Source of the DNA: a virus
Length of the DNA stretch: 22,476 nucleotides
Virus record (IMG/VR): IMGVR_UViG_3300035682_000210
Span: 1 to 22,476 of that record
Direction: 5' to 3' (one strand)
Shown piece by piece: positions 4,988-18,426 of the stretch. The notes below the pieces were generated by a model. The model was not told the origin of the DNA. It searched no databases and worked only from the letters and a program-made list of their open reading frames with translations. A program made the position numbers and the translations under genes. Position 1 is the first letter of the stretch, and each line of letters begins with the position of its first letter.

Positions 4988-5020
4988 AAAAAAAAAGGGA
5001 AGCCGTTAAGCCTCCCTTTC
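4988..5020 (-). terminator. Rho-independent terminator after the capsid/tail-tube genes
   Basis: On the minus strand AAAGGGAGGC pairs with GCTTCCCTTT (one G-T pair near the middle, closing with GGC/GCC) around a six-base loop TTAACG. It is followed directly by an uninterrupted T tract, nine T counted at 4988-4996 of the plus strand. It lies 15 bases beyond the stop of the 171 residue gene. It is the only clear intrinsic terminator in the window and splits the late genes into a capsid-side and a portal-side unit. Confidence 0.9.
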
Positions 5021-6521: not shown

Positions 6522-7091
6522 TTATTTTATTTTGTTTAATATTTCGGTTAATCTTGAGAATTGAGAAGCTCCAACGCTTACACTCTTTCTCTTTGCATCA
6601 TCCTTAACGGGTTCAGCTTCTTCGGTCTTAGCAAGGATTCCAACTGCTGAAAATAATGCAGTTGTCTTTGCGTTTAATGCTTCAATTTCTTTAGCATACT
6701 TAGAGTGAATCTCAGCAATCTGAGTGTTGAAGTCATTTGCTTGAGCCTCTAATGCTTCGTTTACCTTAGACATCATTGCTTCGTCATTCAACGGGCTTTC
6801 TTCTTCAGGGGTTGAAACCTCTTCGATAACTCCACCCGTTACAGTGATAACAATGTCACCTTCTAAAGTGTGTTCACCGTCAGGTACTTCTACTTCAGAA
6901 CCGTCAGCCATAATTAAAGTTACACTTTCGCCAACTGCGATAGTTCCTTTAATACTTGCGCTACCGTCTAACAATTTAGTTTCTGCTAATTCTATTGCAG
7001 GTTCTACTACTGGCGTTTCTTCACTAAAAACTTTTTTAAGTTGGTTAGTAAGGTCTTCGCCTAAGACCTTTTTTAATTTATTAAATTCCAT
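6522..7091 (-). CDS. Possible internally initiated scaffold protein, 189 aa
   Basis: Met199 of the protease gene is a candidate second start in the same frame. It opens what looks like the complete scaffold part, MEFNKLKKVLGEDLTNQLKK onwards. The bases just before it (AAATAAAATAATATCGAAT) are A/T-rich and resemble the true leaders in this window, such as that of the capsid gene, even though they are coding here. Lambda C/Nu3 uses the same nested design, and in related phages, from memory, protease and scaffold are often separate genes. This is inference; no Shine-Dalgarno sequence proves it. Confidence 0.35.
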   Translation of the reverse strand: MEFNKLKKVLGEDLTNQLKKVFSEETPVVEPAIELAETKLLDGSASIKGTIAVGESVTLIMADGSEVEVPDGEHTLEGDIVITVTGGVIEEVSTPEEESPLNDEAMMSKVNEALEAQANDFNTQIAEIHSKYAKEIEALNAKTTALFSAVGILAKTEEAEPVKDDAKRKSVSVGASQFSRLTEILNKIK

Positions 7092-7685
7092 ATTCGATAT
7101 TATTTTATTTTTTAATTCTTCGTATTCGTTTTGTTCGGCTTCGTCTACTTTCTTATCATTAAAGTAACCCTCAACGCTAAAACCTTTGATGTCACCTTTC
7201 TTTGCCATGTCCCATACTGCATCATCCTCAATTTTTACATAACCAAACCATGAACCATCGGGTGCAGGAGTGAAGTTGTCAGGCGTTTTAATGCCTAATT
7301 TGCTATCAATGATAAAATGAGAGAGTAAATAAGCACCTTTTACGGGCAAATTATCGTCGTGGTTTAGGTTAAAACTTAGTGGTTTGCCACTTTTTGCCAA
7401 CTTATTAACGATTCTTGCGATGCTTTCGGAGGTAAATTTGACGTAATATTCAGTCCCGTCTTCATCACGTCGGTAGATTGGCTGCTCGGATACCATTAAA
7501 AAGCCACCTAAAATCCTTTTTTCTTCATCTACAACGGTGAATTTATGGTCAATAGGCTTCTCATCCTCCGAAAATGTCTGCCAATTTCTCTCGATAGCAG
7601 GTTGCAAAACTAAACCTACTGCGAAAACTGAAGTTTCATCCTCAAGATTCTCGTCTATATCCAAAACATATAAAGGTAGCTTCAT
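6522..7685 (-). CDS. XkdF-like prohead protease fused to scaffold
   Basis: Residues ~60-176 form a prohead-protease-like domain: YYVKFTSESIARIVNKL, then FNLNHD with the likely catalytic His109, GSWFGYVKIEDDAVWD, and KGFSVEGYF with the likely nucleophile Ser170. This pattern fits the phage XkdF family. Residues from about 199 look like a scaffold: a helix beginning MEFNKLKKVLGED, a beta segment with VTLIMADGSEVEVPDGEH, an acidic linker, and a coiled coil ~305-350 with AEIHSKYAKEIEALNAKTTA. The C-terminus is basic. The enzyme should cleave the scaffold during head maturation, inside the prohead. It sits directly before the capsid gene. The 42-base gap before it carries the TATAATATAA box. An internal start at Met199 may also make free scaffold. 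Confidence 0.78.
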   Translation of the reverse strand: MKLPLYVLDIDENLEDETSVFAVGLVLQPAIERNWQTFSEDEKPIDHKFTVVDEEKRILGGFLMVSEQPIYRRDEDGTEYYVKFTSESIARIVNKLAKSGKPLSFNLNHDDNLPVKGAYLLSHFIIDSKLGIKTPDNFTPAPDGSWFGYVKIEDDAVWDMAKKGDIKGFSVEGYFNDKKVDEAEQNEYEELKNKIISNMEFNKLKKVLGEDLTNQLKKVFSEETPVVEPAIELAETKLLDGSASIKGTIAVGESVTLIMADGSEVEVPDGEHTLEGDIVITVTGGVIEEVSTPEEESPLNDEAMMSKVNEALEAQANDFNTQIAEIHSKYAKEIEALNAKTTALFSAVGILAKTEEAEPVKDDAKRKSVSVGASQFSRLTEILNKIK

Positions 7686-7727: not shown

Positions 7728-9398
7728 TTAAATCAAAGTTGCGTTATGCCTAATCCTCGCTACTCGACCTTGAGAATCCGTTATGTCCTTTTCTAAAACA
7801 TAGACTCTTTGGTTAGCACTCATTGGGTTACGGTTACTTTGGAATGTATCTATTCTTGGAGGTTGACTTGAGAAATTGCCCCCACCTATACCACCACCAC
7901 CGCCTCCAGTATTACTAACACCCTTACCTCCAAATTCAGTTCTCCCAATCGCTACCACTCTTGCTAAACCACTTGCGGTTGCTATCCCTGCGGCTATTTG
8001 CGCCCTTATTGGTGCATCAGGTGTCGGAATACTTAACTGTGAAGCATAGGCTTTCTGCGCTGATAAATAAGTATCTATAATTGTAGTACTTATGTTTAAC
8101 GCTTTATTTACTGCAAAGGCTCTTCTTTGCCCCTCTTCTGATTTGCCCGCAAATGCAGATGTTAAATCACTTAAAGCATTTAACCCATCCCTTGTTAGGT
8201 TTAATTTATTATCAAACAACTGTTTTTCTAATGCCAACTTTTTATCGGTTGCCTCTTGTTCTGCCAAAACCTCTGCCTCAAGTTGTGACATAAGCAAAGC
8301 CATATCTTCCTCCCCTTGTTTAACATTGTCTAAATATAATTGTACATGAGAATCTTGTTGCTCTAACTTTAATTCTTCTTTGACGGTTTTTTGTACAACA
8401 ACTTTTTCTTTGCCTACTTTCTTTTTACTGTCTAAAATTTGTTTATTGTGTTGAGCCTCTAAAACTTTATCCTCTTGTCTTAATTCTTCAAGCTTAGTTT
8501 GATATTCTTCAGCAGATACTATGCCTTGTAGTTTTTGTCTTTCAAGTTGTAAAATGTTATTTGAAATTATTAAAGACTTCTTGCGATAAATTTGTTCTTC
8601 TTTACCACCAATTGCCTCAAGTATTTCTATTTCATTCTCTAAAGATTTATTCTTTTTATTATTTGCCTTTTCAAATTCCTCAACTTTTCTTTTGCCCTCT
8701 GAACTAATCCCTATAAAGTCAGTCACTGCATTGTAAGCCGCCTTAAATCCTTTTGACAATGTGTCTAAACTTGGGATAAACTTACCGACAGTATTTTTAA
8801 GTTTGTCAAAATTGGTTACAAGTAAAGCAATACCACCGACAATTAACGCTATTGGTAACGCTGCACCTGCTATCCTTAACAACTTTGTCATCCCCGTTGT
8901 AGCTTGAACCGCCATCGCATAGCGTTTCTGAGCAAAAGTACTTATGTTAGTAGCAATAGTATTCGCAGTAGTGTAGGCTGCACTTGTTTTGTTAAGTGTG
9001 TTAGCGACTGCTTGAATCCCTGCAAGTGCTGACATTGCCCCTTGCAACTTAACCATTGTCTTTTGCAAGTCCTCATTCTCAGTTCCAACCATTGCCGTAA
9101 TACCTTGAACCGCAGCAAACCCCCCGACAATACCTTGAGTTATGGAAATTAAACCGTCCAATCTCTTAGAATCACTTGCTAAGTTCTTAACTTGTTGGTT
9201 TACATCACCTATCTTGTCTTGTAGTTGACCTGCTTCTTTGCTTAATTTTGTAAATTGTGCATTATCTAAAGTCCCCGAAGCCAATAAAGCCTTCATCTCC
9301 TTTAGCTGAGTTTTTAAACTCTTGGTTTTTTGTTCTACCTGCTCAACACTTTCGCCACCTTTGATGACGAGGTCTACTTCTATTTTAGTTTTTGCCAT
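7728..9398 (-). CDS. Tail tape measure protein
   Basis: The 556 residue product has the tape measure layout. A helical N-terminus (KTKSLKTQLKEMKALLASG) precedes a long Ala/Thr/Gly-rich middle and one strongly hydrophobic segment at ~173-194 (LPIALIVGGIALLV). A Lys/Glu-rich coiled coil spans about 235-400, followed by a small-residue stretch and a glycine-rich region (GGGGGGIGGG) near the C-terminus. Tape measure proteins lie in the tail lumen and set tail length. With the rough 1.5 angstrom per residue rule, 556 residues would give a short tail of about 80 nm. Unusually it is encoded downstream of the hub/fibre genes and directly upstream of the protease gene, where lambdoid phages have tape measure before the tail tip. 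The leader is A-rich. Confidence 0.75.
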   Translation of the reverse strand: MAKTKIEVDLVIKGGESVEQVEQKTKSLKTQLKEMKALLASGTLDNAQFTKLSKEAGQLQDKIGDVNQQVKNLASDSKRLDGLISITQGIVGGFAAVQGITAMVGTENEDLQKTMVKLQGAMSALAGIQAVANTLNKTSAAYTTANTIATNISTFAQKRYAMAVQATTGMTKLLRIAGAALPIALIVGGIALLVTNFDKLKNTVGKFIPSLDTLSKGFKAAYNAVTDFIGISSEGKRKVEEFEKANNKKNKSLENEIEILEAIGGKEEQIYRKKSLIISNNILQLERQKLQGIVSAEEYQTKLEELRQEDKVLEAQHNKQILDSKKKVGKEKVVVQKTVKEELKLEQQDSHVQLYLDNVKQGEEDMALLMSQLEAEVLAEQEATDKKLALEKQLFDNKLNLTRDGLNALSDLTSAFAGKSEEGQRRAFAVNKALNISTTIIDTYLSAQKAYASQLSIPTPDAPIRAQIAAGIATASGLARVVAIGRTEFGGKGVSNTGGGGGGIGGGNFSSQPPRIDTFQSNRNPMSANQRVYVLEKDITDSQGRVARIRHNATLI

Positions 9399-9611: not shown

Positions 9612-10421
9612 TTATGCTTCCGTTAAAATTACTGCACCTGTTAGTGATGTTGATATTGCAGAAAACACACTAATTGCAAGGCAAGCGTCAGGGTCTATTT
9701 CTGCCAAAGAACCGATAATGCAACCTGTACTAACTGAATCTAATGGCATTGCACCTGTTGCACTTTCCAATGAAATCATTGCCAAAGGCTTGAACATACA
9801 AATCCCAAAATTACCTGCCGTTCCTGTGGTGGCAGTAACGGTTACTGATTCAATACTTTCCACACCTGTATCACCCGCTTGTAATGGAATAGGAAGTAAA
9901 ACACCTGCCTCTCTAAAACCTGTATTCCCAATTGATATGGCAGTAGATGTTCTACCTGATGTTCCTGCTGAATTTGTGTAGCTTATTGTTACCGTTGTCG
10001 CAGTTGTTCCTACTGTTGTATAAACTACAATTCCTGCCATAACACCTTCACCCGATGTATACCTTGTAAGTGCTGCGGTTGGTAAGTTGGTAGTTTGGGC
10101 AGTAGTTAAAGTTCCATTCAGTCCTCCGCTAACATTTAACAAATCAACTAAAAGCATACCGCCTGCGCCAAATGTTGAAGTATTAAATCTACCGCCCAAA
10201 AATGTAAGTCGCCCTGTTGATATGTTAGGGATAGGCCCTATTGATTGAGCAGAATTTTTATTAAGAGCAACGCTTGTAGTTGGTGTAGCAGGTGCAGGAT
10301 TAAAAGATTGCCAACTTGCGTTCAATCGCAAAGTTCTACTGATTGATGTGGATAGCTGAAAATCTGCAACACGATTTTCTTGTAGCTTTTCTACATATTC
10401 ATCAAAGTCTGTTAGTGCCAT
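9612..10421 (-). CDS. Virion structural protein, paralogue of the preceding gene (269 aa)
   Basis: The N-terminus MALTDFDEYVEKLQENRVAD is helical, followed by a beta-rich Gly/Thr/Ser body. The C-terminal ~160 residues align well with the 282 residue protein encoded just upstream. Shared stretches are the TAALTR/TPALTR segment, TVTISYTNSAGT, SIGNTGFRE, PLQAGDTGVESIE, the 12-residue TATTGTAGNFGI and DPDACLAISVF. The two genes overlap by one base (TAATG). The body resembles surface or tail structural proteins with an AGDxGVxSI motif known from several tailed phages. No enzyme motif is visible. A decoration, tail-surface or adsorption role is likely, and the paralogue pair may form a hetero-oligomer. 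Confidence 0.65.
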   Translation of the reverse strand: MALTDFDEYVEKLQENRVADFQLSTSISRTLRLNASWQSFNPAPATPTTSVALNKNSAQSIGPIPNISTGRLTFLGGRFNTSTFGAGGMLLVDLLNVSGGLNGTLTTAQTTNLPTAALTRYTSGEGVMAGIVVYTTVGTTATTVTISYTNSAGTSGRTSTAISIGNTGFREAGVLLPIPLQAGDTGVESIESVTVTATTGTAGNFGICMFKPLAMISLESATGAMPLDSVSTGCIIGSLAEIDPDACLAISVFSAISTSLTGAVILTEA

Positions 10422-11269
10422 TATTTTTCAATTGTTGCTAATGAACCAAATAATTCAGGTGCAGTTGCAGCACTTGGGATAAACATTAGTGCTAAACAAG
10501 CATTAGGGTCAATAACGGGTATGCCAGGCAATCCTGTTGTGTAATCTCTCCACCCCATTGTACCAGCTGCACCAACTGGAATCCATGCCAACGGTTGAGC
10601 AATGGTTATACCAAAGTTGCCTGCAGTTCCCGTTGTCGCAGTTAATTGTATTTGCTCAATAGCTTGTATTCCCGAATCTCCTGCTGCTAAAGGTATTCTT
10701 TGCATTCTTGTAACCTCACGGAAACCCGTTGCACCTATATTAATAGTTGATGTTCTACTTCCTGTACCTGCTTGGTTTGTATAGGTCATTGTAAGGGTTG
10801 TAGATGCTGTTCCTATTATTGTATAAATCTCATAGAATGCAATATTCCCTGCGCCCCCTGTATTACGAGTAAGAGCAGGAGTTGGTGTTGAGCCTTGAAT
10901 AGTTTGAGCTGCGGTTGAAATTCCCGAAAGTCCGCCCTCGTGAAATAACCTATCGTATAAAAGATAAACTCCCGCAGTTAATGGAGTAATAGATGCCCCA
11001 ATTAAATGTTTATCTCTGCCACCACCTGCGGCAGTAAAAGGAATTGCACCTTGAGTTGATTTAGTAGGTATAGCACCTACTGTGGGTACATTCCCCTTTG
11101 CAGGCATTCCATCGTATTCCCACAAAGAACATCCTCTACCTGATATTGGCGAAGTTGCAGAAACACCTGCGACTCTTGGCACTTTGTGAAAAAAGATATT
11201 TTCAGGTGTACCACTATTGCCGCCTGTTTGTCGATTTATTAAATCGGATAAGTCAGTTATTGATGCCAT
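10421..11269 (-). CDS. Virion structural protein, first of a tandem paralogue pair (282 aa)
   Basis: The N-terminus MASITDLSDLINRQTGGNSG is unique to this copy. It continues with a segment holding FFHKVPRVAG and CSLWEYDGMP that the neighbour lacks. From about residue 120 it matches the 269 residue paralogue (TPALTRNTGG, TLTMTYTNQAGT, INIGATGFRE, PLAAGDSGIQAIE, TATTGTAGNFGI, DPNACLALMF). The duplication is old, since only short runs are identical. The gene lies after the 1094 residue hub/fibre gene with a 19-base A/T-rich gap and no Shine-Dalgarno sequence. It is probably a virion surface or tail protein. It could bind host surface glycans, but nothing in the sequence proves that. Confidence 0.65.
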   Translation of the reverse strand: MASITDLSDLINRQTGGNSGTPENIFFHKVPRVAGVSATSPISGRGCSLWEYDGMPAKGNVPTVGAIPTKSTQGAIPFTAAGGGRDKHLIGASITPLTAGVYLLYDRLFHEGGLSGISTAAQTIQGSTPTPALTRNTGGAGNIAFYEIYTIIGTASTTLTMTYTNQAGTGSRTSTINIGATGFREVTRMQRIPLAAGDSGIQAIEQIQLTATTGTAGNFGITIAQPLAWIPVGAAGTMGWRDYTTGLPGIPVIDPNACLALMFIPSAATAPELFGSLATIEK

Positions 11270-11288: not shown

Positions 11289-14200
11289 TTATAAATACTG
11301 TAAATAAATATCTCCATCAGAACCGCCTACAGGTGCAGCCGTTCCACTTGTTATTGCTTTTTGTTTGCTATTGAATGTACTCCAATCTGATGAATTTAAT
11401 GCACCTCTATTAGCTGCTGATGCCGTTGGTACATTTAAAGTTATTACAGGTGTTGTAGTTGAATTTGCTACTGAACTACTTAAATCAGTGCCACTTGTAC
11501 CTAAAGTCAGAGCTGCAACCGAAGTTACTGTTCCACTACCTCCACCGCCTCCCCCAACTCCACCTGCTAAAAATTCTAATCTGCTTAAATAAGCATCTTC
11601 AATGTAAACCCCAATGTCGGGAGTGCCTGACGAAACAATAGTATAGAATTTAATGGCTAATCTATCCGTACTCAACAAAGTAATTATAGACGGGTTGTAA
11701 ATCTCTAACTCGTAGTCATCAATACTCAAAGTGATATTTGTCGAAGTCACTGGAGTTGTCGCTAAAAGCGTTTCAGTCCCTGCTAAGTTACGTTTGTACA
11801 CTTCGGCAAAGATTGTTGCATTACCTCCATTTGTTCGCTTAGCATGAAAGTGAGTTTTAAACACTCCCGTAGGAATAAAGAGAGTGCCAGGACTTGATGG
11901 CTCGGTTACAAAAGTAGCCAACAAAGTAGTCCCCGAACAATTCGCAACCGTTACATCTTGACTGCCTCCCGTTGATGGACTTGTCAACATTTTATAATAC
12001 CCCCCGATATCGCTCGCAGTCTTAAAGAAAAACAAATTTAAATCTGCAAATTGATTTGTCGCAAATTCTATTTGATTATTAGTAGCGTTATAAGTCCATA
12101 CTTGCCCGTTGATTGGACTGCCGACTAATACTTTGATATTGTCGATGTATTGAACTCCACTCTCAGCGATGGTTAAACCACTTGTATTGATTAAAACAAC
12201 ATCGGTGATGCCGGGCAAGATTACGTTGTTATCCCCTTGAATAATTACATTTGAGTTATCCCCTCCTAAGTTGTTCCCGTTGCCCGTAACTACTATACCG
12301 TTGGTGTTATCGTTTATTACATTGCCTCCCGTAGCTAATAAACCTTTTTTAATTACGTTGCGTGTAGTGTTATAACCTCCGTCTTTCTCGCCTTGCCCGT
12401 TACCTCCACTTGATTGTAAGATAGTAGGAACAAACGCATCTTGATAAGCAAATTTTAAAAGTTTACATAGAGTTGTAGAGTTTCCGTTCGGGTCATAATC
12501 TTGAACCGTTAAAAGTCGGTAAGCGTTATCTTTAACCCAATAAGTCTTACGGAAGTCTAAGTTTGCAATGTCGTTTGGCCTAAGTTTAAACCATGCTTCT
12601 ACTAACTTACTATCCTTATTCCCTATTTGTTCCCATTGACTCTTGTGGAATTGGTTGTATAGGTTATTGTCCGTTGTGGTAACCCCCGAACTTTGAGGGG
12701 TTAGGTAATAATAAAAGTCTTGAACATCAAAAGCTAAATCATAGTTAGGAGAGTTTAAGTCATCGACGTGTCCTGCATACGGATAAGTACTATAATCGGT
12801 AGCCGTTGTATTATTAAAGTTCCAATATCTCAGCTTCCCTGACTTCATGCCTCCAAAGTAAGCGATAATCGGTTTAGGCGATTTCTCTTGCGTTTCTCCA
12901 TCAAAGATGGTACGCATTACTACGTTCTTATCGTCATCAGTTTGCAAGGGGATAAGACAAAAAGGGATTTCAACTTTTTTAGTTTCTTTAACAAATTCAT
13001 TATCGAAGATTAAATCCCTATACCCAAAGTTAAAAGATGTCGCTTGTTTAAACTTCTTATTAAGGTCATCCCCATTCTCGGTGTAGGTAAACACTAACTC
13101 TTTATTCTCAAGTAGTCCTTGAGGCTTAATTGTAAAGTCCTTAGACGTGTCTAACAAGTCCGTCCAATCAACTACATCATCAGTGTAATATGTATCTCTC
13201 GGTTCAATTACAACACCCGTTTCATAAATCGGACTCATGTACAAATTAAACATTTTAATTATTGCCATTAAGAAGTCCGTTTGTTTCATGTTAGGCAGGA
13301 TTCTCTCAATTGGGAATGTTTGACCGTATTCTATTTGACCATCTACATATTGAGTGTAGCTATTTGCAAATGAGCTTATAAATCCAACATTCCCACCAAG
13401 TGTACTATTGTCTATTGTGCCTCCCGTTGCCCCTAAAAAAAAATTACCTACACAAAATCTAACTTCATCTCCTGCGAATAATTCAGCTGAGTTCACCGTT
13501 ATTCTAAAACTTTGTGTTGTAGTTGAATATCCAGGTATATCTAAATGTGTCTCTTCTATTATTTTATAATCAGTCCCTCGCTTACGAATAGCGTAAATGT
13601 ATAACCTACCTAATGGCCCAGTAGTATTAACAACGTTTAAAGCTGCCTCTACTTCAAAGTTAGTATAACCTGAAATTAGTTTAGTGAATGTTCCCGTAGT
13701 GGCGTTGTATTGACCTAAAGGGTCTAACCCCGTTATGTTATATTGAAGTGCATTTGCATAGATTAAACTTAAATTCCCTGCATTTGCAGTTGATACTATT
13801 GATATGGTTTGAGTTGTTGACCTTGTCGCAGTTACAATACTGGCAGCCTTTTCGCCTTCATTCATTTTGAACTTAGCTACGTCGCATTGAATGATTAACT
13901 TTTGGAATTGTGCCGTATTAAAAAAACTTGCAACCTCCAAAGGGACTTCAGCCTCTTCAAAGATAGCATTGATAATATGCCCGACATAAATAAAAGGCTT
14001 AAAACTATTGTAGTTGTGACTTATAACCGTAGAAGCATCCCCATTGAAACCGAACTTATCTAAACCCACATCGACCATAGGATAAGTCAACTTAATAACG
14101 GGGTCAAAGGTTGCAGTCCAACTATTTACTATTTCAGTATCGTTCCACGTTGCAGTGCCTAAACTGGTAAGGTCGTTTAAAGTCTTATCGGTTAGCCTTG

Positions 14201-14573
14201 AAAAGATATCTATGTTCTTCCCGTAGATAGTTATCGAGTAGGTTACTTGGTCATTGTTTAAAACCTTAATCTCGTTTAACTGACAATATCCACTTATTTG
14301 TTGTAGTGTGTCTTGATAGTAAATACAAGTTGCTTTCTTAGACGGGTTGAAATCGGGATTAAGTTGGTCGGTGTTTCTTATTGAAAAGGAAACATCGAAC
14401 AAAGACTTAAAAACAAAATCATTCAACTTACTTCCAGGTATGTCGACTGACTTACTAAAGTCCGATTGACGTTTGCTTGGGTCATCTATGTTGTAGACCT
14501 CTTTAGTTATGTTGATGTCTATGTCTTCAATGGTGTCTATACTATATCCACCTATTACCAATTCATTTCTCAT
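11289..14573 (-). CDS. Large modular tail hub/fibre protein, 1094 aa
   Basis: This is the largest protein of the window. The N-terminal part starts MRNELVIGGYSIDTIEDIDI and continues with RQSDFSKSVDIPGSKLNDF and TYSITIYGKNIDIFSRL. I associate it with tail hub/baseplate-like proteins of Bacteroidetes phages. Residues ~754-800 form an Asn/Gly-rich beta-helix-like stretch (IVVTGNGNNLGGDNSNVII, then QGDNNVI). Residues ~844-999 begin FFFKTASDIGGYYKML and end with a TDRLAIKFYT strand, a fibre domain seen, from memory, in many unrelated tailed phages. After a GGGGGGSG linker, the last ~80 residues (GTVTSVAALTL, SSDWSTFNSKQ) resemble common Bacteroidetes phage fibre tips. It probably links the tail tip to receptor binding. 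It overlaps the upstream gene by one base (TAATG). Confidence 0.75.
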   Translation of the reverse strand: MRNELVIGGYSIDTIEDIDINITKEVYNIDDPSKRQSDFSKSVDIPGSKLNDFVFKSLFDVSFSIRNTDQLNPDFNPSKKATCIYYQDTLQQISGYCQLNEIKVLNNDQVTYSITIYGKNIDIFSRLTDKTLNDLTSLGTATWNDTEIVNSWTATFDPVIKLTYPMVDVGLDKFGFNGDASTVISHNYNSFKPFIYVGHIINAIFEEAEVPLEVASFFNTAQFQKLIIQCDVAKFKMNEGEKAASIVTATRSTTQTISIVSTANAGNLSLIYANALQYNITGLDPLGQYNATTGTFTKLISGYTNFEVEAALNVVNTTGPLGRLYIYAIRKRGTDYKIIEETHLDIPGYSTTTQSFRITVNSAELFAGDEVRFCVGNFFLGATGGTIDNSTLGGNVGFISSFANSYTQYVDGQIEYGQTFPIERILPNMKQTDFLMAIIKMFNLYMSPIYETGVVIEPRDTYYTDDVVDWTDLLDTSKDFTIKPQGLLENKELVFTYTENGDDLNKKFKQATSFNFGYRDLIFDNEFVKETKKVEIPFCLIPLQTDDDKNVVMRTIFDGETQEKSPKPIIAYFGGMKSGKLRYWNFNNTTATDYSTYPYAGHVDDLNSPNYDLAFDVQDFYYYLTPQSSGVTTTDNNLYNQFHKSQWEQIGNKDSKLVEAWFKLRPNDIANLDFRKTYWVKDNAYRLLTVQDYDPNGNSTTLCKLLKFAYQDAFVPTILQSSGGNGQGEKDGGYNTTRNVIKKGLLATGGNVINDNTNGIVVTGNGNNLGGDNSNVIIQGDNNVILPGITDVVLINTSGLTIAESGVQYIDNIKVLVGSPINGQVWTYNATNNQIEFATNQFADLNLFFFKTASDIGGYYKMLTSPSTGGSQDVTVANCSGTTLLATFVTEPSSPGTLFIPTGVFKTHFHAKRTNGGNATIFAEVYKRNLAGTETLLATTPVTSTNITLSIDDYELEIYNPSIITLLSTDRLAIKFYTIVSSGTPDIGVYIEDAYLSRLEFLAGGVGGGGGGSGTVTSVAALTLGTSGTDLSSSVANSTTTPVITLNVPTASAANRGALNSSDWSTFNSKQKAITSGTAAPVGGSDGDIYLQYL

Positions 14574-15835: not shown

Positions 15836-16438
15836 CTACCTTTTAAATTCGGTGATTAATCTAAACTCAACATCTTGACCGATAATCAAACTTAGTTTGT
15901 TAGTTAGTTCGTTGTAACTTTCATCGTTAAATGTGTCTGAATAGAAGCGTGTGCCATCAATACCCTTTAGTTTGATAGCTAAAGCCATTGACTCTGCCAT
16001 TTGGAAACTCGTTTGTATTACTTGACTTGTCGACTCATTGCCTACCCTTGCTTCAAGTCCTTTTCTTGCGATGAAGTCTTGTAGGCTATTTATCATTTGA
16101 GGCGGTGTGCCTATGTTTCTAAAACTGAATCCATTGGGAAAGTCTTTATTAGTGTAAGTCTTTGTAGGTATCGAACCCGTCTTAGGGCCTGACTTATTCC
16201 TAAGTCCTTTAACTCCTAAGTCAATATACATCCAGTAATCGTTTAAGTCAATAGCCATTGAAACTACACCACCTTTGATTATCGGGTCTTGTAGGTCTAT
16301 ACTCTGTGCTAAATTACTTTCAGTCTTCTTATGCTTAAGTCTTTCTCTCAGGAGTCTTCGCATCTCATTTGCGTTTGCGTTGCCCCATTCTAAAAGAACA
16401 TCGGCACACTTGTCTAATATTTCATCACTTATTTTCAT
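15836..16438 (-). CDS. HK97 gp10-like head-tail joining / tail completion protein
   Basis: The 200 residue protein starts with a helix (MKISDEILDKCADVLLEWGN) and a basic helical stretch RRLLRERLKHKK. A beta segment ending in YWMYIDLGVKGLRNKSG and a basic loop with PTKTYTNKDFP follow, then a helical region QMINSLQDFIARKGLEARVG. The YIDLGVKG strand followed by a loop is what I expect of HK97 gp10-like proteins, which sit at the head-tail interface or tail terminator. The N-terminal helices are longer than in the shortest members. It ends in a TAG stop, where most genes here use TAA or TGA. It is separated from the upstream split gene by a 64-base gap holding an inverted repeat. Confidence 0.6.
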   Translation of the reverse strand: MKISDEILDKCADVLLEWGNANANEMRRLLRERLKHKKTESNLAQSIDLQDPIIKGGVVSMAIDLNDYWMYIDLGVKGLRNKSGPKTGSIPTKTYTNKDFPNGFSFRNIGTPPQMINSLQDFIARKGLEARVGNESTSQVIQTSFQMAESMALAIKLKGIDGTRFYSDTFNDESYNELTNKLSLIIGQDVEFRLITEFKR

Positions 16439-16502: not shown

Positions 16503-17203
16503 TTATTTCTTTGGTTGATTATCAGCTTTGTCTTTTAAATAACATAGATGGTTCAAGAAGTCATAAGCGTTCATTTTAAAATAGTAGTTGAACTTAGACC
16601 TATCTTCTTTCGCAAATAGTTTATCAATTGTCGCATACCAAGACCACTTAGCAGAGAACCAATCCGACTCTTGTTCTTCTTCCTCCGTTTCCTTTTCTTT
16701 ATTAAAGAGGACTGGATACCCTCCGATAATTTCACTAAAAGAAGTGCAAAAAAAAACCCTATCGGATAAGCGACATCCACATCTAAATGAGATTGAAACA
16801 ACTCTGCCCTCCGATTAAACTCGGTCATCTGAACATCCTCATCTTTTTCCTTGTAGCACATAGTCGCTAAGATTAAATGTAGATTGTCTACAATCGCTTC
16901 TTTCTCCTTAGTCAAAGATGACATGGAAATAAACTGCTCAGTATTCCAATCGGTTAAATATTGATTGACAAAGAACCTTTCCCCTTTCACTTCAAACTCA
17001 GTTACCCACGCATCAGGGAATGTACTGATGTCGGGAATAATAACACTCTCTTGTTCCTTTAGAAAATCAGTCCACTTCATTCGTTTATATTCTGAAATAG
17101 GTTTGCCCGTTAGAACTGACAATACATTGTATGCCGTTCTTATTTCATTGTTGTCGCCTAACTTAATGGCGTTGTATAACTCTTGGTATGTTTTAATGTT
17201 CAT
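16503..17203 (-). CDS. Tail-assembly-chaperone-like protein read across two frames (frameshift at T9)
   Basis: Frame one runs from ATG at 17203 and stops at 16571, giving 210 residues. Its part up to PIGFFF (residue 152) looks genuine and contains WTDFLKEQESVI, KGERFFVNQYLTD and NLHLILATMCYKEK. After that it becomes a Lys/Arg run (IKKRKRRKKNKSR) typical of glutamate-rich DNA read out of frame. The -1 frame is open over the same bases and encodes FNKEKETEEEEQESDWFSAK, then WSWYATIDKLFAKED and NAYDFLNHLCYLKDKAD, ending TAA at 16503. That ending matches my memory of the C-terminus of this family in Bacteroidetes phages. Joining at the nine-T tract (16748-16756) gives about 233 residues. It starts in a four-base overlap with terminase. 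Tail chaperone function is inferred from position and the frameshift habit. Confidence 0.65.
16748..16756 (-). other. T9 slippery tract, candidate -1 frameshift site
   Basis: Nine consecutive T in the sense strand are read as three Phe codons between Gly (GGG) and Ala (GCA). The in-frame heptamer T-TTT-TTT fits the X-XXY-YYZ rule for -1 slippage, and the -1 frame after it encodes a sensible C-terminus. An alternative is a one-base undercall in the assembly, since ten T would also join the frames. A second, weaker site is the A-rich stretch around 16698-16708. Confidence 0.6.
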
Positions 17204-18426
17204 CGTATTCGGTATGTGCCAAGTCCTGGCTGTTGTATAATGTGGGTGAATCCGTATCTCATAGCATCCATTAAGTGGTTGTGTATGTCAATAGGTTCTC
17301 CCGTTGGTTTATTGTTGCGGTCAGTTGCCCAAACATAAGACCTCAATTCTTTGATAAGGTTTGTTGAGTGTTTAGTGACTAAAAGGTTTTGTTGCTGTAT
17401 CAATTGTATTCCGTGCAAGATTGAATCCTTACCTTTTAAAGCCCCCATGCACTTAAGACCATAGCTTTGCAGTTCAGCTATTGACTTAGGTTCTGCTGAG
17501 TCACAAATGACCATTGTCGGCTCATTGCGTATCATATCGAATATATTCTTATTGCTCAGTTCCTTTTGATAGATTAATTCGTGCAGGATAAACGAATCAT
17601 TGTACTTGTAAATGCCAATACAAGCCGTCGGGTCAACTGAATATCCAAAGTCTAATCCAATCCCTAAAAGTCTTGCATCATTCGGTAAATTATCTATTTG
17701 TTGCCAATTAGTAAATATCGTTCCTGAAAGCGAACCAACTAAACCTAATCCATATACTCGCCATCTATTAGCCCAATACCCATTTTTAATATTACTTTCG
17801 GCAAACAAGGACTCCCCTAATAATTCAGTATTAAAAAAACCTTTATCCCTATAATCTAATATGCTGTTAACTTCGCTTTGTGGCAAATATTCATTATCCT
17901 CAAATGTTAAAGTTATAAAGTTGTTATCATTTATGTATTCATCGCCCCAAAATAATTTATCAGGGTTATAATCTATTATTGTAAGTTTTGCCCTTGATAT
18001 GAATTGTACCGCAGTTTCAATATTCATCCTATCGGCTTCATTTATGTAAAGAATATCACGACGGAATCCCTTACCTATATCATTTACATCAGCCCCTAAG
18101 AAGTCTAAGTAAGAACCATTTGGATATTCATGCTTAGATTCTGATTTATTAAAATCGTTTTCTGTTTGAAATATACCCCAATCTTTGCAAATCTTCTTAT
18201 AATCCCTTATAACCGTTCTTTTCATCTTTGATAGTTCCGATGAAAGTATTGAGGCTTCTTTCTCTGAAGATAACAAAGCTTGAATAATTAACTCAATAAT
18301 TGAAATAGTCTTAGACGCACCTTGTCCACCCCTAATGACAAAAATACTTTCATTTGGATTAGAAAGTATTAAGTTAAGGATTTTAAAATACGCCCTCGAA
18401 TATTTATATTTATTGCCTGTTTCCAA
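17200..18426 (-). CDS. terL: Terminase large subunit
   Basis: This is the DNA packaging motor, an ATPase that pumps DNA through the portal with a nuclease that cuts concatemers. In 408 residues it shows Walker A GGQGASKT at 33-40, a Walker B DILYINEAD at 124-132 with catalytic Glu130, and an RNase H-like nuclease domain. The acidic residues are Asp259 (GLDFGYSVDPTA), Asp309 (VICDSAEPKS) and Asp387 (NHLMDAMRYG). The length is normal for the phage terminase large subunit (PBSX/Terminase_6-like). The start must be TTG at 18424-18426, because the frame is closed by a TAA about 20 bases upstream and no early ATG exists. It overlaps the small subunit gene by 17 bases. The weak start may keep its level below the small subunit. 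Its TGA overlaps the next ATG. Confidence 0.93.
   Translation of the reverse strand: METGNKYKYSRAYFKILNLILSNPNESIFVIRGGQGASKTISIIELIIQALLSSEKEASILSSELSKMKRTVIRDYKKICKDWGIFQTENDFNKSESKHEYPNGSYLDFLGADVNDIGKGFRRDILYINEADRMNIETAVQFISRAKLTIIDYNPDKLFWGDEYINDNNFITLTFEDNEYLPQSEVNSILDYRDKGFFNTELLGESLFAESNIKNGYWANRWRVYGLGLVGSLSGTIFTNWQQIDNLPNDARLLGIGLDFGYSVDPTACIGIYKYNDSFILHELIYQKELSNKNIFDMIRNEPTMVICDSAEPKSIAELQSYGLKCMGALKGKDSILHGIQLIQQQNLLVTKHSTNLIKELRSYVWATDRNNKPTGEPIDIHNHLMDAMRYGFTHIIQQPGLGTYRIR

What the first reader, a model, noticed from the sequence alone, without database searches (positions are those of the whole stretch)
16503..17203. Tail-chaperone-like gene is split over two frames at a nine-T slippery tract
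Frame one gives good protein to PIGFFF and then a Lys/Arg run. The -1 frame from the T9 tract encodes an acidic linker and a WSWYATIDKLF...NAYDFLNHLCY ending to TAA at 16503. That frame has no start of its own. T-TTT-TTT is a valid -1 slippery heptamer, and tail assembly chaperones of siphophages classically use programmed -1 frameshifting. The competing explanation is a missing T in the assembly.
Basis: partly seen in the sequence, partly recalled or inferred. Interest (0 to 1): 0.78.

Follow-up and report, generated by a model that had tools for sequence, protein, structure and literature searches.

The report
Phage gene pair fused by nine-T slippage
A flavobacterial phage gene next to the DNA-packaging gene is read in two frames joined at a run of nine T's, and 128 distinct sequences all keep a run of 9-10 T's and the same split, so it is a real programmed slip (probably by RNA polymerase) that makes a short and a long form of a likely tail-assembly protein, not a sequencing mistake.

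Summary
On the minus strand, frame 0 (17203-16571, 210 aa) runs through T9 (16748-16756); the -1 frame, with no usable start, continues to TAA at 16503 (fused 233 aa). Assembly error is refuted: 128 distinct sequences (relatives down to 17% identity, including isolated Nonlabens phages P12024L/S) all have the same split at T9 (121) or T10 (7). Among close relatives, substitution periodicity switches from frame 0 to -1 exactly at the tract. Remote Duneviridae relatives carry both parts in one frame (profile E 4e-12), so the fusion is a genuine protein. The run sits in all three codon phases yet never falls below nine: when the upstream codon supplies fewer T's, the downstream codon always supplies them. 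Nine is the RNA:DNA hybrid length and the known bacterial slippage threshold; no RNA structure flanks the site. Ribosomal frameshifting is not excluded. The tail-chaperone role is plausible (two-product layout, neck/tail neighbourhood, weak top fold match to the HK97 chaperone) but unproven, and the gene does not lie beside the tape measure here.

The parts
16748..17203 (-). N domain, frame 0, shared by the short and long products (152 aa up to the end of the T tract)
   Evidence: Coding periodicity in frame 0; AlphaFold model pLDDT 90
16748..16756 (-). T9 slip tract (GGG TTT TTT TTT GCA in frame 0)
   Evidence: Identical in all 27 close sequences; T9 or T10 in 128 of 128 distinct contexts
16571..16747 (-). 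Frame-0 tail of the short product (58 codons plus stop), Lys/Arg-rich, not selected as protein in the window clade
   Evidence: Substitutions follow the -1 frame here; openness is not unusual, P 0.29
16503..16748 (-). C domain in the -1 frame (81 aa plus TAA): acidic linker, W-W-Y motif, helices; only reached by recoding
   Evidence: Coding periodicity in the -1 frame; conserved W35/W37/Y38 of the C part across 48 sequences; helical model, pLDDT 72
17200..18426 (-). Terminase large subunit, directly upstream neighbour (context)
   Evidence: Pfam Terminase_3C 4e-17; a TerL match lies upstream in 105 of 128 relatives, mostly within 300 nt
15836..16438 (-). Downstream neighbour, possibly a tail-completion protein (by eye; no family match above noise)
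   Evidence: PHROG 17241 of unknown function at E 0.005; no Pfam match
7728..9398 (-). Likely tape measure protein, six genes and 7.1 kb from the recoded gene (context)
   Evidence: PHROG 3336 tail length tape measure, E 9e-10

Best explanation
The gene is one unit that gives two proteins: a short one (N domain plus a frame-0 tail, 210 aa) and a long one (N domain joined to an 81-aa helical C domain, 233 aa). The join is made at a conserved run of nine T's. Most likely RNA polymerase slips on T9, where the whole RNA:DNA hybrid is rU:dA and can re-pair in register; mRNAs with one extra U (or two fewer) place the C domain in frame and ordinary translation makes the long protein, while U9 mRNAs make the short one. 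Shown here: the split, its deep conservation, coding selection on both sides of the tract and the fixed run length. Inferred: that polymerase rather than ribosome slips, and the product ratio. Also inferred: a G/GT-like tail-assembly chaperone pair of a siphophage of Flavobacteriia.
For: 128 distinct contexts, all T9 or T10, all split 0/-1; periodicity switch at the tract. Run length, not codon phase, is conserved: first codon TTT goes with a following codon that never starts with T, first codon GTT/CTT/ATT with one that always does, first codon GCT/TGT/TCT with TTN. At least nine changes of phase/length class on the tree; the residue after the run changed at least 20 times, at least 12 within phase 1 and always to a T-first codon, base rate 20%. 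TTC is 28% of Phe codons in the N part but absent from the tract. No flanking RNA structure in 33 representatives. No T run of nine in 517 kb of other ORF DNA; the window's other coding T9, at 13435, is not conserved. Nine A/T is the slippage threshold in many bacterial genomes (PMC1088944), slippage at nine is efficient in vivo and the hybrid is 9-10 bp (PMC5009743), insertions prevail at A/T runs (PMC5574713). Single-frame homologues of the whole fusion exist. Tail role: layout as in lambda G/GT, HK97 chaperone 2OB9 top PDB match, homologue three genes before the tape measure in Ingeline_1.
Against: No RNA or protein was examined. Every run of nine or more also contains the in-frame heptamer T_TTT_TTT. 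Strictly independent phase switches are few (three plus three, all in the predicted direction; sign tests not significant). The fold match is weak (E 4.1, Z 2.3) and the gene is not next to the tape measure in the window.
Confidence: 0.62

Rival explanations
1. Programmed -1 ribosomal frameshifting: the ribosome slips with two tRNA-Phe on T_TTT_TTT inside the run, as in lambda G/GT; the extra T's are incidental or only improve slipping.
For: The heptamer is in frame in every member whatever the phase; tail chaperones of other phages use ribosomal -1 shifts (PMC5009743).
Against: Seven T's would do, yet no T7 or T8 site exists among 128, and flanking codons compensate to keep nine; no TTC in the third codon although U_UUU_UUC is allowed; no stimulatory structure.
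Confidence: 0.3
2. Assembly or sequencing error: one T is missing and the gene is really a single frame.
For: Homopolymers are error-prone; remote relatives are single-frame.
Against: Same tract and split in 128 distinct sequences from many samples and in two isolated phages, with the run in three codon phases and T9/T10 differing by substitution rather than by insertion (L197 against L199).
Confidence: 0.01
3. Phase variation: replication slippage at the tract switches the long form on and off between genomes.
For: Long homopolymers can serve as contingency loci.
Against: No member with the fusion in frame was found among the loci fetched.
Confidence: 0.02
4. Two separate genes: the C part is translated from its own start, as annotated in P12024L_41 and P12024S_39.
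For: Annotators called two CDS in both Nonlabens phages.
Against: The window has no usable start in the -1 frame; the -1 frame is under coding constraint soon after the tract; single-frame homologues show one continuous protein.
Confidence: 0.03

Closest known systems
Lambda gpG/gpGT tail assembly chaperone pair and its counterparts in most long-tailed phages
   Same: Short product plus a longer -1 product with an added C-terminal domain; structural gene region of a tailed phage.
   Different: No sequence similarity found; gene follows TerL, not directly before the tape measure; tract is T9 with conserved length rather than a heptamer; probably slips at transcription.
Transcriptional slippage genes: Thermus dnaX, Shigella mxiE and spa13 (T3SS), slippage-type IS elements
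   Same: Run of nine A or T in the coding strand, two frames, long product (mxiE, spa13) only after slippage.
   Different: Here the site is in a phage structural-region gene, conserved over 128 sequences in three codon phases; slippage itself not yet measured.
PHROG 25418 proteins of Duneviridae (Flavobacterium phages FPSV-F7 and laban6-1, Cellulophaga phage Ingeline_1)
   Same: Homologous over N and C parts, profile E 4e-12; FF coded by T6 at the junction in three of five.
   Different: Single uninterrupted frame of 293-301 aa; no T9.
PHROG 32199 (unknown function)
   Same: Matches the N part of relatives (E down to 3e-15), apparently the frame-0 product of the same family.
   Different: Covers only the N part; the -1 extension is missed by annotation.
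Nonlabens phages P12024L_40/_41 and P12024S_38/_39
   Same: Same TerL neighbour, same T9 and -1 arrangement in isolated phages.
   Different: Annotated as two unrelated hypothetical proteins; run in codon phase 1 rather than 0.

Membership tests
G/GT tail assembly chaperone | Two overlapping frames, conserved -1 shift giving a long and a short product | tested here: met
   128 distinct contexts; periodicity. That both products are made is not shown.
G/GT tail assembly chaperone | Gene lies directly upstream of the tape measure gene | tested here: not met
   Window: six genes and 7.1 kb away. Single-frame homologue in Ingeline_1: three genes upstream.
G/GT tail assembly chaperone | Fold like solved tail assembly chaperones | tested here: inconclusive
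   2OB9 (HK97) is the top PDB match but E 4.1, Z 2.3 over 73 residues.
G/GT tail assembly chaperone | Binds tape measure and tail tube; absent from mature virions | not testable with these tools
   Needs biochemistry and virion proteomics.
Transcriptional slippage site | Run of about nine or more A or T in the coding strand | tested here: met
   T9 in 121, T10 in 7 of 128.
Transcriptional slippage site | Run length conserved regardless of reading-frame phase | tested here: met
   Codon table, tree changes; few strictly independent switches.
Transcriptional slippage site | mRNA of mixed run length | not testable with these tools
   Needs cDNA sequencing.
-1 programmed ribosomal frameshifting | In-frame X_XXY_YYZ heptamer | tested here: met
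   T_TTT_TTT in frame in every member.
-1 programmed ribosomal frameshifting | Stimulatory RNA structure near the site (common, not universal) | tested here: not met
   33 representatives: mean z 0.16 (0-60 nt downstream), 0.07 (5-95 nt), 0.5 upstream; none below -2. Pseudoknots not modelled.
-1 programmed ribosomal frameshifting | Upstream Shine-Dalgarno-like stimulator | not tested
   Not tested systematically.

The most novel reading that the evidence does not exclude
A whole lineage of flavobacterial tailed phages makes its tail-assembly-chaperone pair by RNA-polymerase slippage on a T9 tract instead of by ribosomal frameshifting. The codon phase of the tract drifts through all three positions while its length stays at the RNA:DNA hybrid length, and sister lineages carry the same protein unsplit.
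Probability: 0.4. Interest if true: 0.75.

Novelty: new variant of a known kind. Interest (0 to 1): 0.6.

Why it matters
Two-product tail chaperones are a textbook case of ribosomal frameshifting. A phage lineage that reaches the same end through transcription would show the two mechanisms to be interchangeable (as for dnaX), in phages of Bacteroidota, where I found no earlier report. It offers a natural panel of 128 sites in three codon phases for separating selection on run length from selection on a heptamer. It also corrects annotation: such genes are now called as two unrelated hypothetical proteins or one truncated one, and tools that look only for slippery heptamers with structures will miss them.

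Tried and rejected
Assembly error and phase variation: rejected. Own start for the -1 ORF: rejected. RNA stimulatory structure downstream or upstream: none found. Selection for an open frame-0 tail: not supported (P 0.29). Pfam, NCBIfam and sequence search of solved structures: no usable match; PHROGs gives only families of unknown function. Two family-wide scans failed because alignment A1 was too diverged. A GTDB genome scan gave only three MAG contigs, not analysed further. Other TerL relatives (L042, L067, phi46:1, FpV9, BT12) have other genes after TerL and were not used. Relatives cannot be drawn for a virus record. Flavobacterium phage 6H first looked like another split case, but its close kin FPSV-F7 is single-frame, so 6H is probably a broken or mis-sequenced copy.

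Full report
Check of the observation. The minus strand of 16503-17203 is as described. The ATG at 17203 opens a frame that reads GGG TTT TTT TTT GCA over nine T's (16756-16748) and ends after a Lys/Arg-rich tail at 16571 (210 aa). The -1 frame continues from the last T for 81 aa to TAA at 16503. No start codon gives that frame an ORF of 50 aa or more.

It is not an assembly error. A search of IMG/VR with the fused protein gave 33 loci: 27 distinct sequences with the window, down to 73% identity. Each has exactly nine T's, the same two frames and an invariant 23-nt block around the tract. Third positions vary most in frame 0 before the tract (128/149 against 51 and 31) and in the -1 frame after it (37/58 against 20 and 17), so protein is selected in one frame before the tract and in the other after it.

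The arrangement is old. Terminase-linked loci and further searches brought in relatives as low as 17% identity. After removal of duplicates there are 128 slip contexts: T9 in 121 and T10 in 7. No locus fetched carries the two parts fused in one frame by a motif search, apart from the remote relatives below; one contig, L140, has an internal deletion that puts only the far C-terminal end into frame 0. Two isolated phages, Nonlabens P12024L and P12024S, have the split too, annotated as two hypothetical proteins each. A terminase large subunit match lies upstream in 105 of 128 loci.

The fusion is a real polypeptide. The fold search of the N domain pointed to Flavobacterium phage 6H among others. 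Kin of 6H in Duneviridae, a Polaribacter phage and a Microcystis phage encode single-frame proteins of 259-301 aa, three of them with FF coded by T6 at the corresponding place, and the C-terminal part in the same frame. Profile-profile comparison aligns these with the fused family over some 220 columns including the junction (96.9%, E 1.6e-10; 97.6%, E 4.4e-12).

Which machine slips? The run lies in all three phases relative to frame 0. The codon table is strict. If the first codon is TTT, the codon after the two following TTT codons starts with G, C or A. If the first codon is GTT, CTT or ATT, that codon always starts with T (TAC, TCG, TGC, TGG, TAT, TTG, TTC). If it is GCT, TGT or TCT, that codon is TTN. 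A slippery heptamer needs only seven T's; what is kept is nine. On a tree of 41 representatives the phase and length classes need at least nine changes. The residue after the run changed at least 20 times, at least 12 of them inside phase 1 and always to another T-first codon, although only 20% of codons in the N part start with T. Shuffling the downstream contexts never reproduced a minimum of nine in 200,000 trials; this ignores kinship, and strictly independent phase switches are few (three plus three, none contradicting the prediction, sign tests not significant). TTC, 28% of Phe codons in the N part, is absent from the tract. No flanking RNA structure was found in 33 representatives. In 517 kb of other ORF DNA from these loci no T run reaches nine. 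The window's own second coding T9, at 13435, is interrupted in relatives L088 and L098 though kept in L084, and the third, at 4988, follows a hairpin as in an intrinsic terminator.

These are the marks of transcriptional slippage. Nine A or T is the length at which avoidance in coding regions becomes evident in many bacterial genomes, and is found at known slippage genes (PMC1088944). Bacterial polymerase slips efficiently at nine in vivo and its hybrid is 9-10 bp (PMC5009743). Insertions prevail at such runs in transcriptomes (PMC5574713). Ribosomal -1 frameshifting remains possible, since every run contains T_TTT_TTT in frame. I put polymerase slippage at about 0.62 and the ribosome at about 0.3. 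No transcript or protein has been examined.

What does the protein do? The N domain is modelled well (pLDDT 90). Its best match among solved structures, and the only one with Z of 2 or more among the 67 chains re-aligned, is the HK97 tail assembly chaperone 2OB9, but at E 4.1 and Z 2.3 that is a hint, not a result. The C domain is a small helical unit with no match. The two-product layout is that of lambda G/GT. In Cellulophaga phage Ingeline_1 the single-frame homologue sits after portal and adaptor and three genes before the tape measure. In the window it follows TerL and lies six genes from the likely tape measure. A tail-assembly chaperone is the best guess (about 0.6, inference). Membership is not established: the position test fails here and the fold test is inconclusive.

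Novelty. Two-product recoding of tail chaperones and slippage at nine A/T are both known. Searches of the held open-licence literature found no report of transcriptional slippage used for a tail chaperone, nor of recoding in these phages; most subscription papers are not held. I file it as a new variant of a known kind.

Noticed in passing
13435-13443: A second T9 in coding sense inside the 1094-aa gene 11289-14573 (GGTAATTTTTTTTTAGGG); kept in L084 but TTTTTATTT in L088 and L098, so apparently chance; slippage there would truncate the protein.
   Followed up: partly
4988-4996: T9 directly after a GC-rich hairpin (AAGGGAGGCTTAACGGCTTCCC) in an intergenic gap: an intrinsic-terminator-like site.
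   Followed up: no
L140:2136-2846: Relative with T9 kept but an internal deletion after WGWY that puts the last part of the C domain into frame 0; a natural defect or an assembly join.
   Followed up: partly
L240:10352-10927: Flavobacterium phage 6H gene AGN89393.1 is cut short by a frame break, while close relatives (FPSV-F7) have a 293-aa single frame; sequencing error or a broken copy.
   Followed up: partly
9612-11269: Two adjacent genes (282 and 269 aa) look alike by eye (shared ..TAGNFGI.. region), probably a tandem duplication of a structural protein; no family match.
   Followed up: no
6522-7685: Head protease (Pfam Peptidase_S78_2, XkdF-like) whose C-terminal part matches a Mu Gam-like profile weakly; possibly a protease-scaffold fusion.
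   Followed up: no
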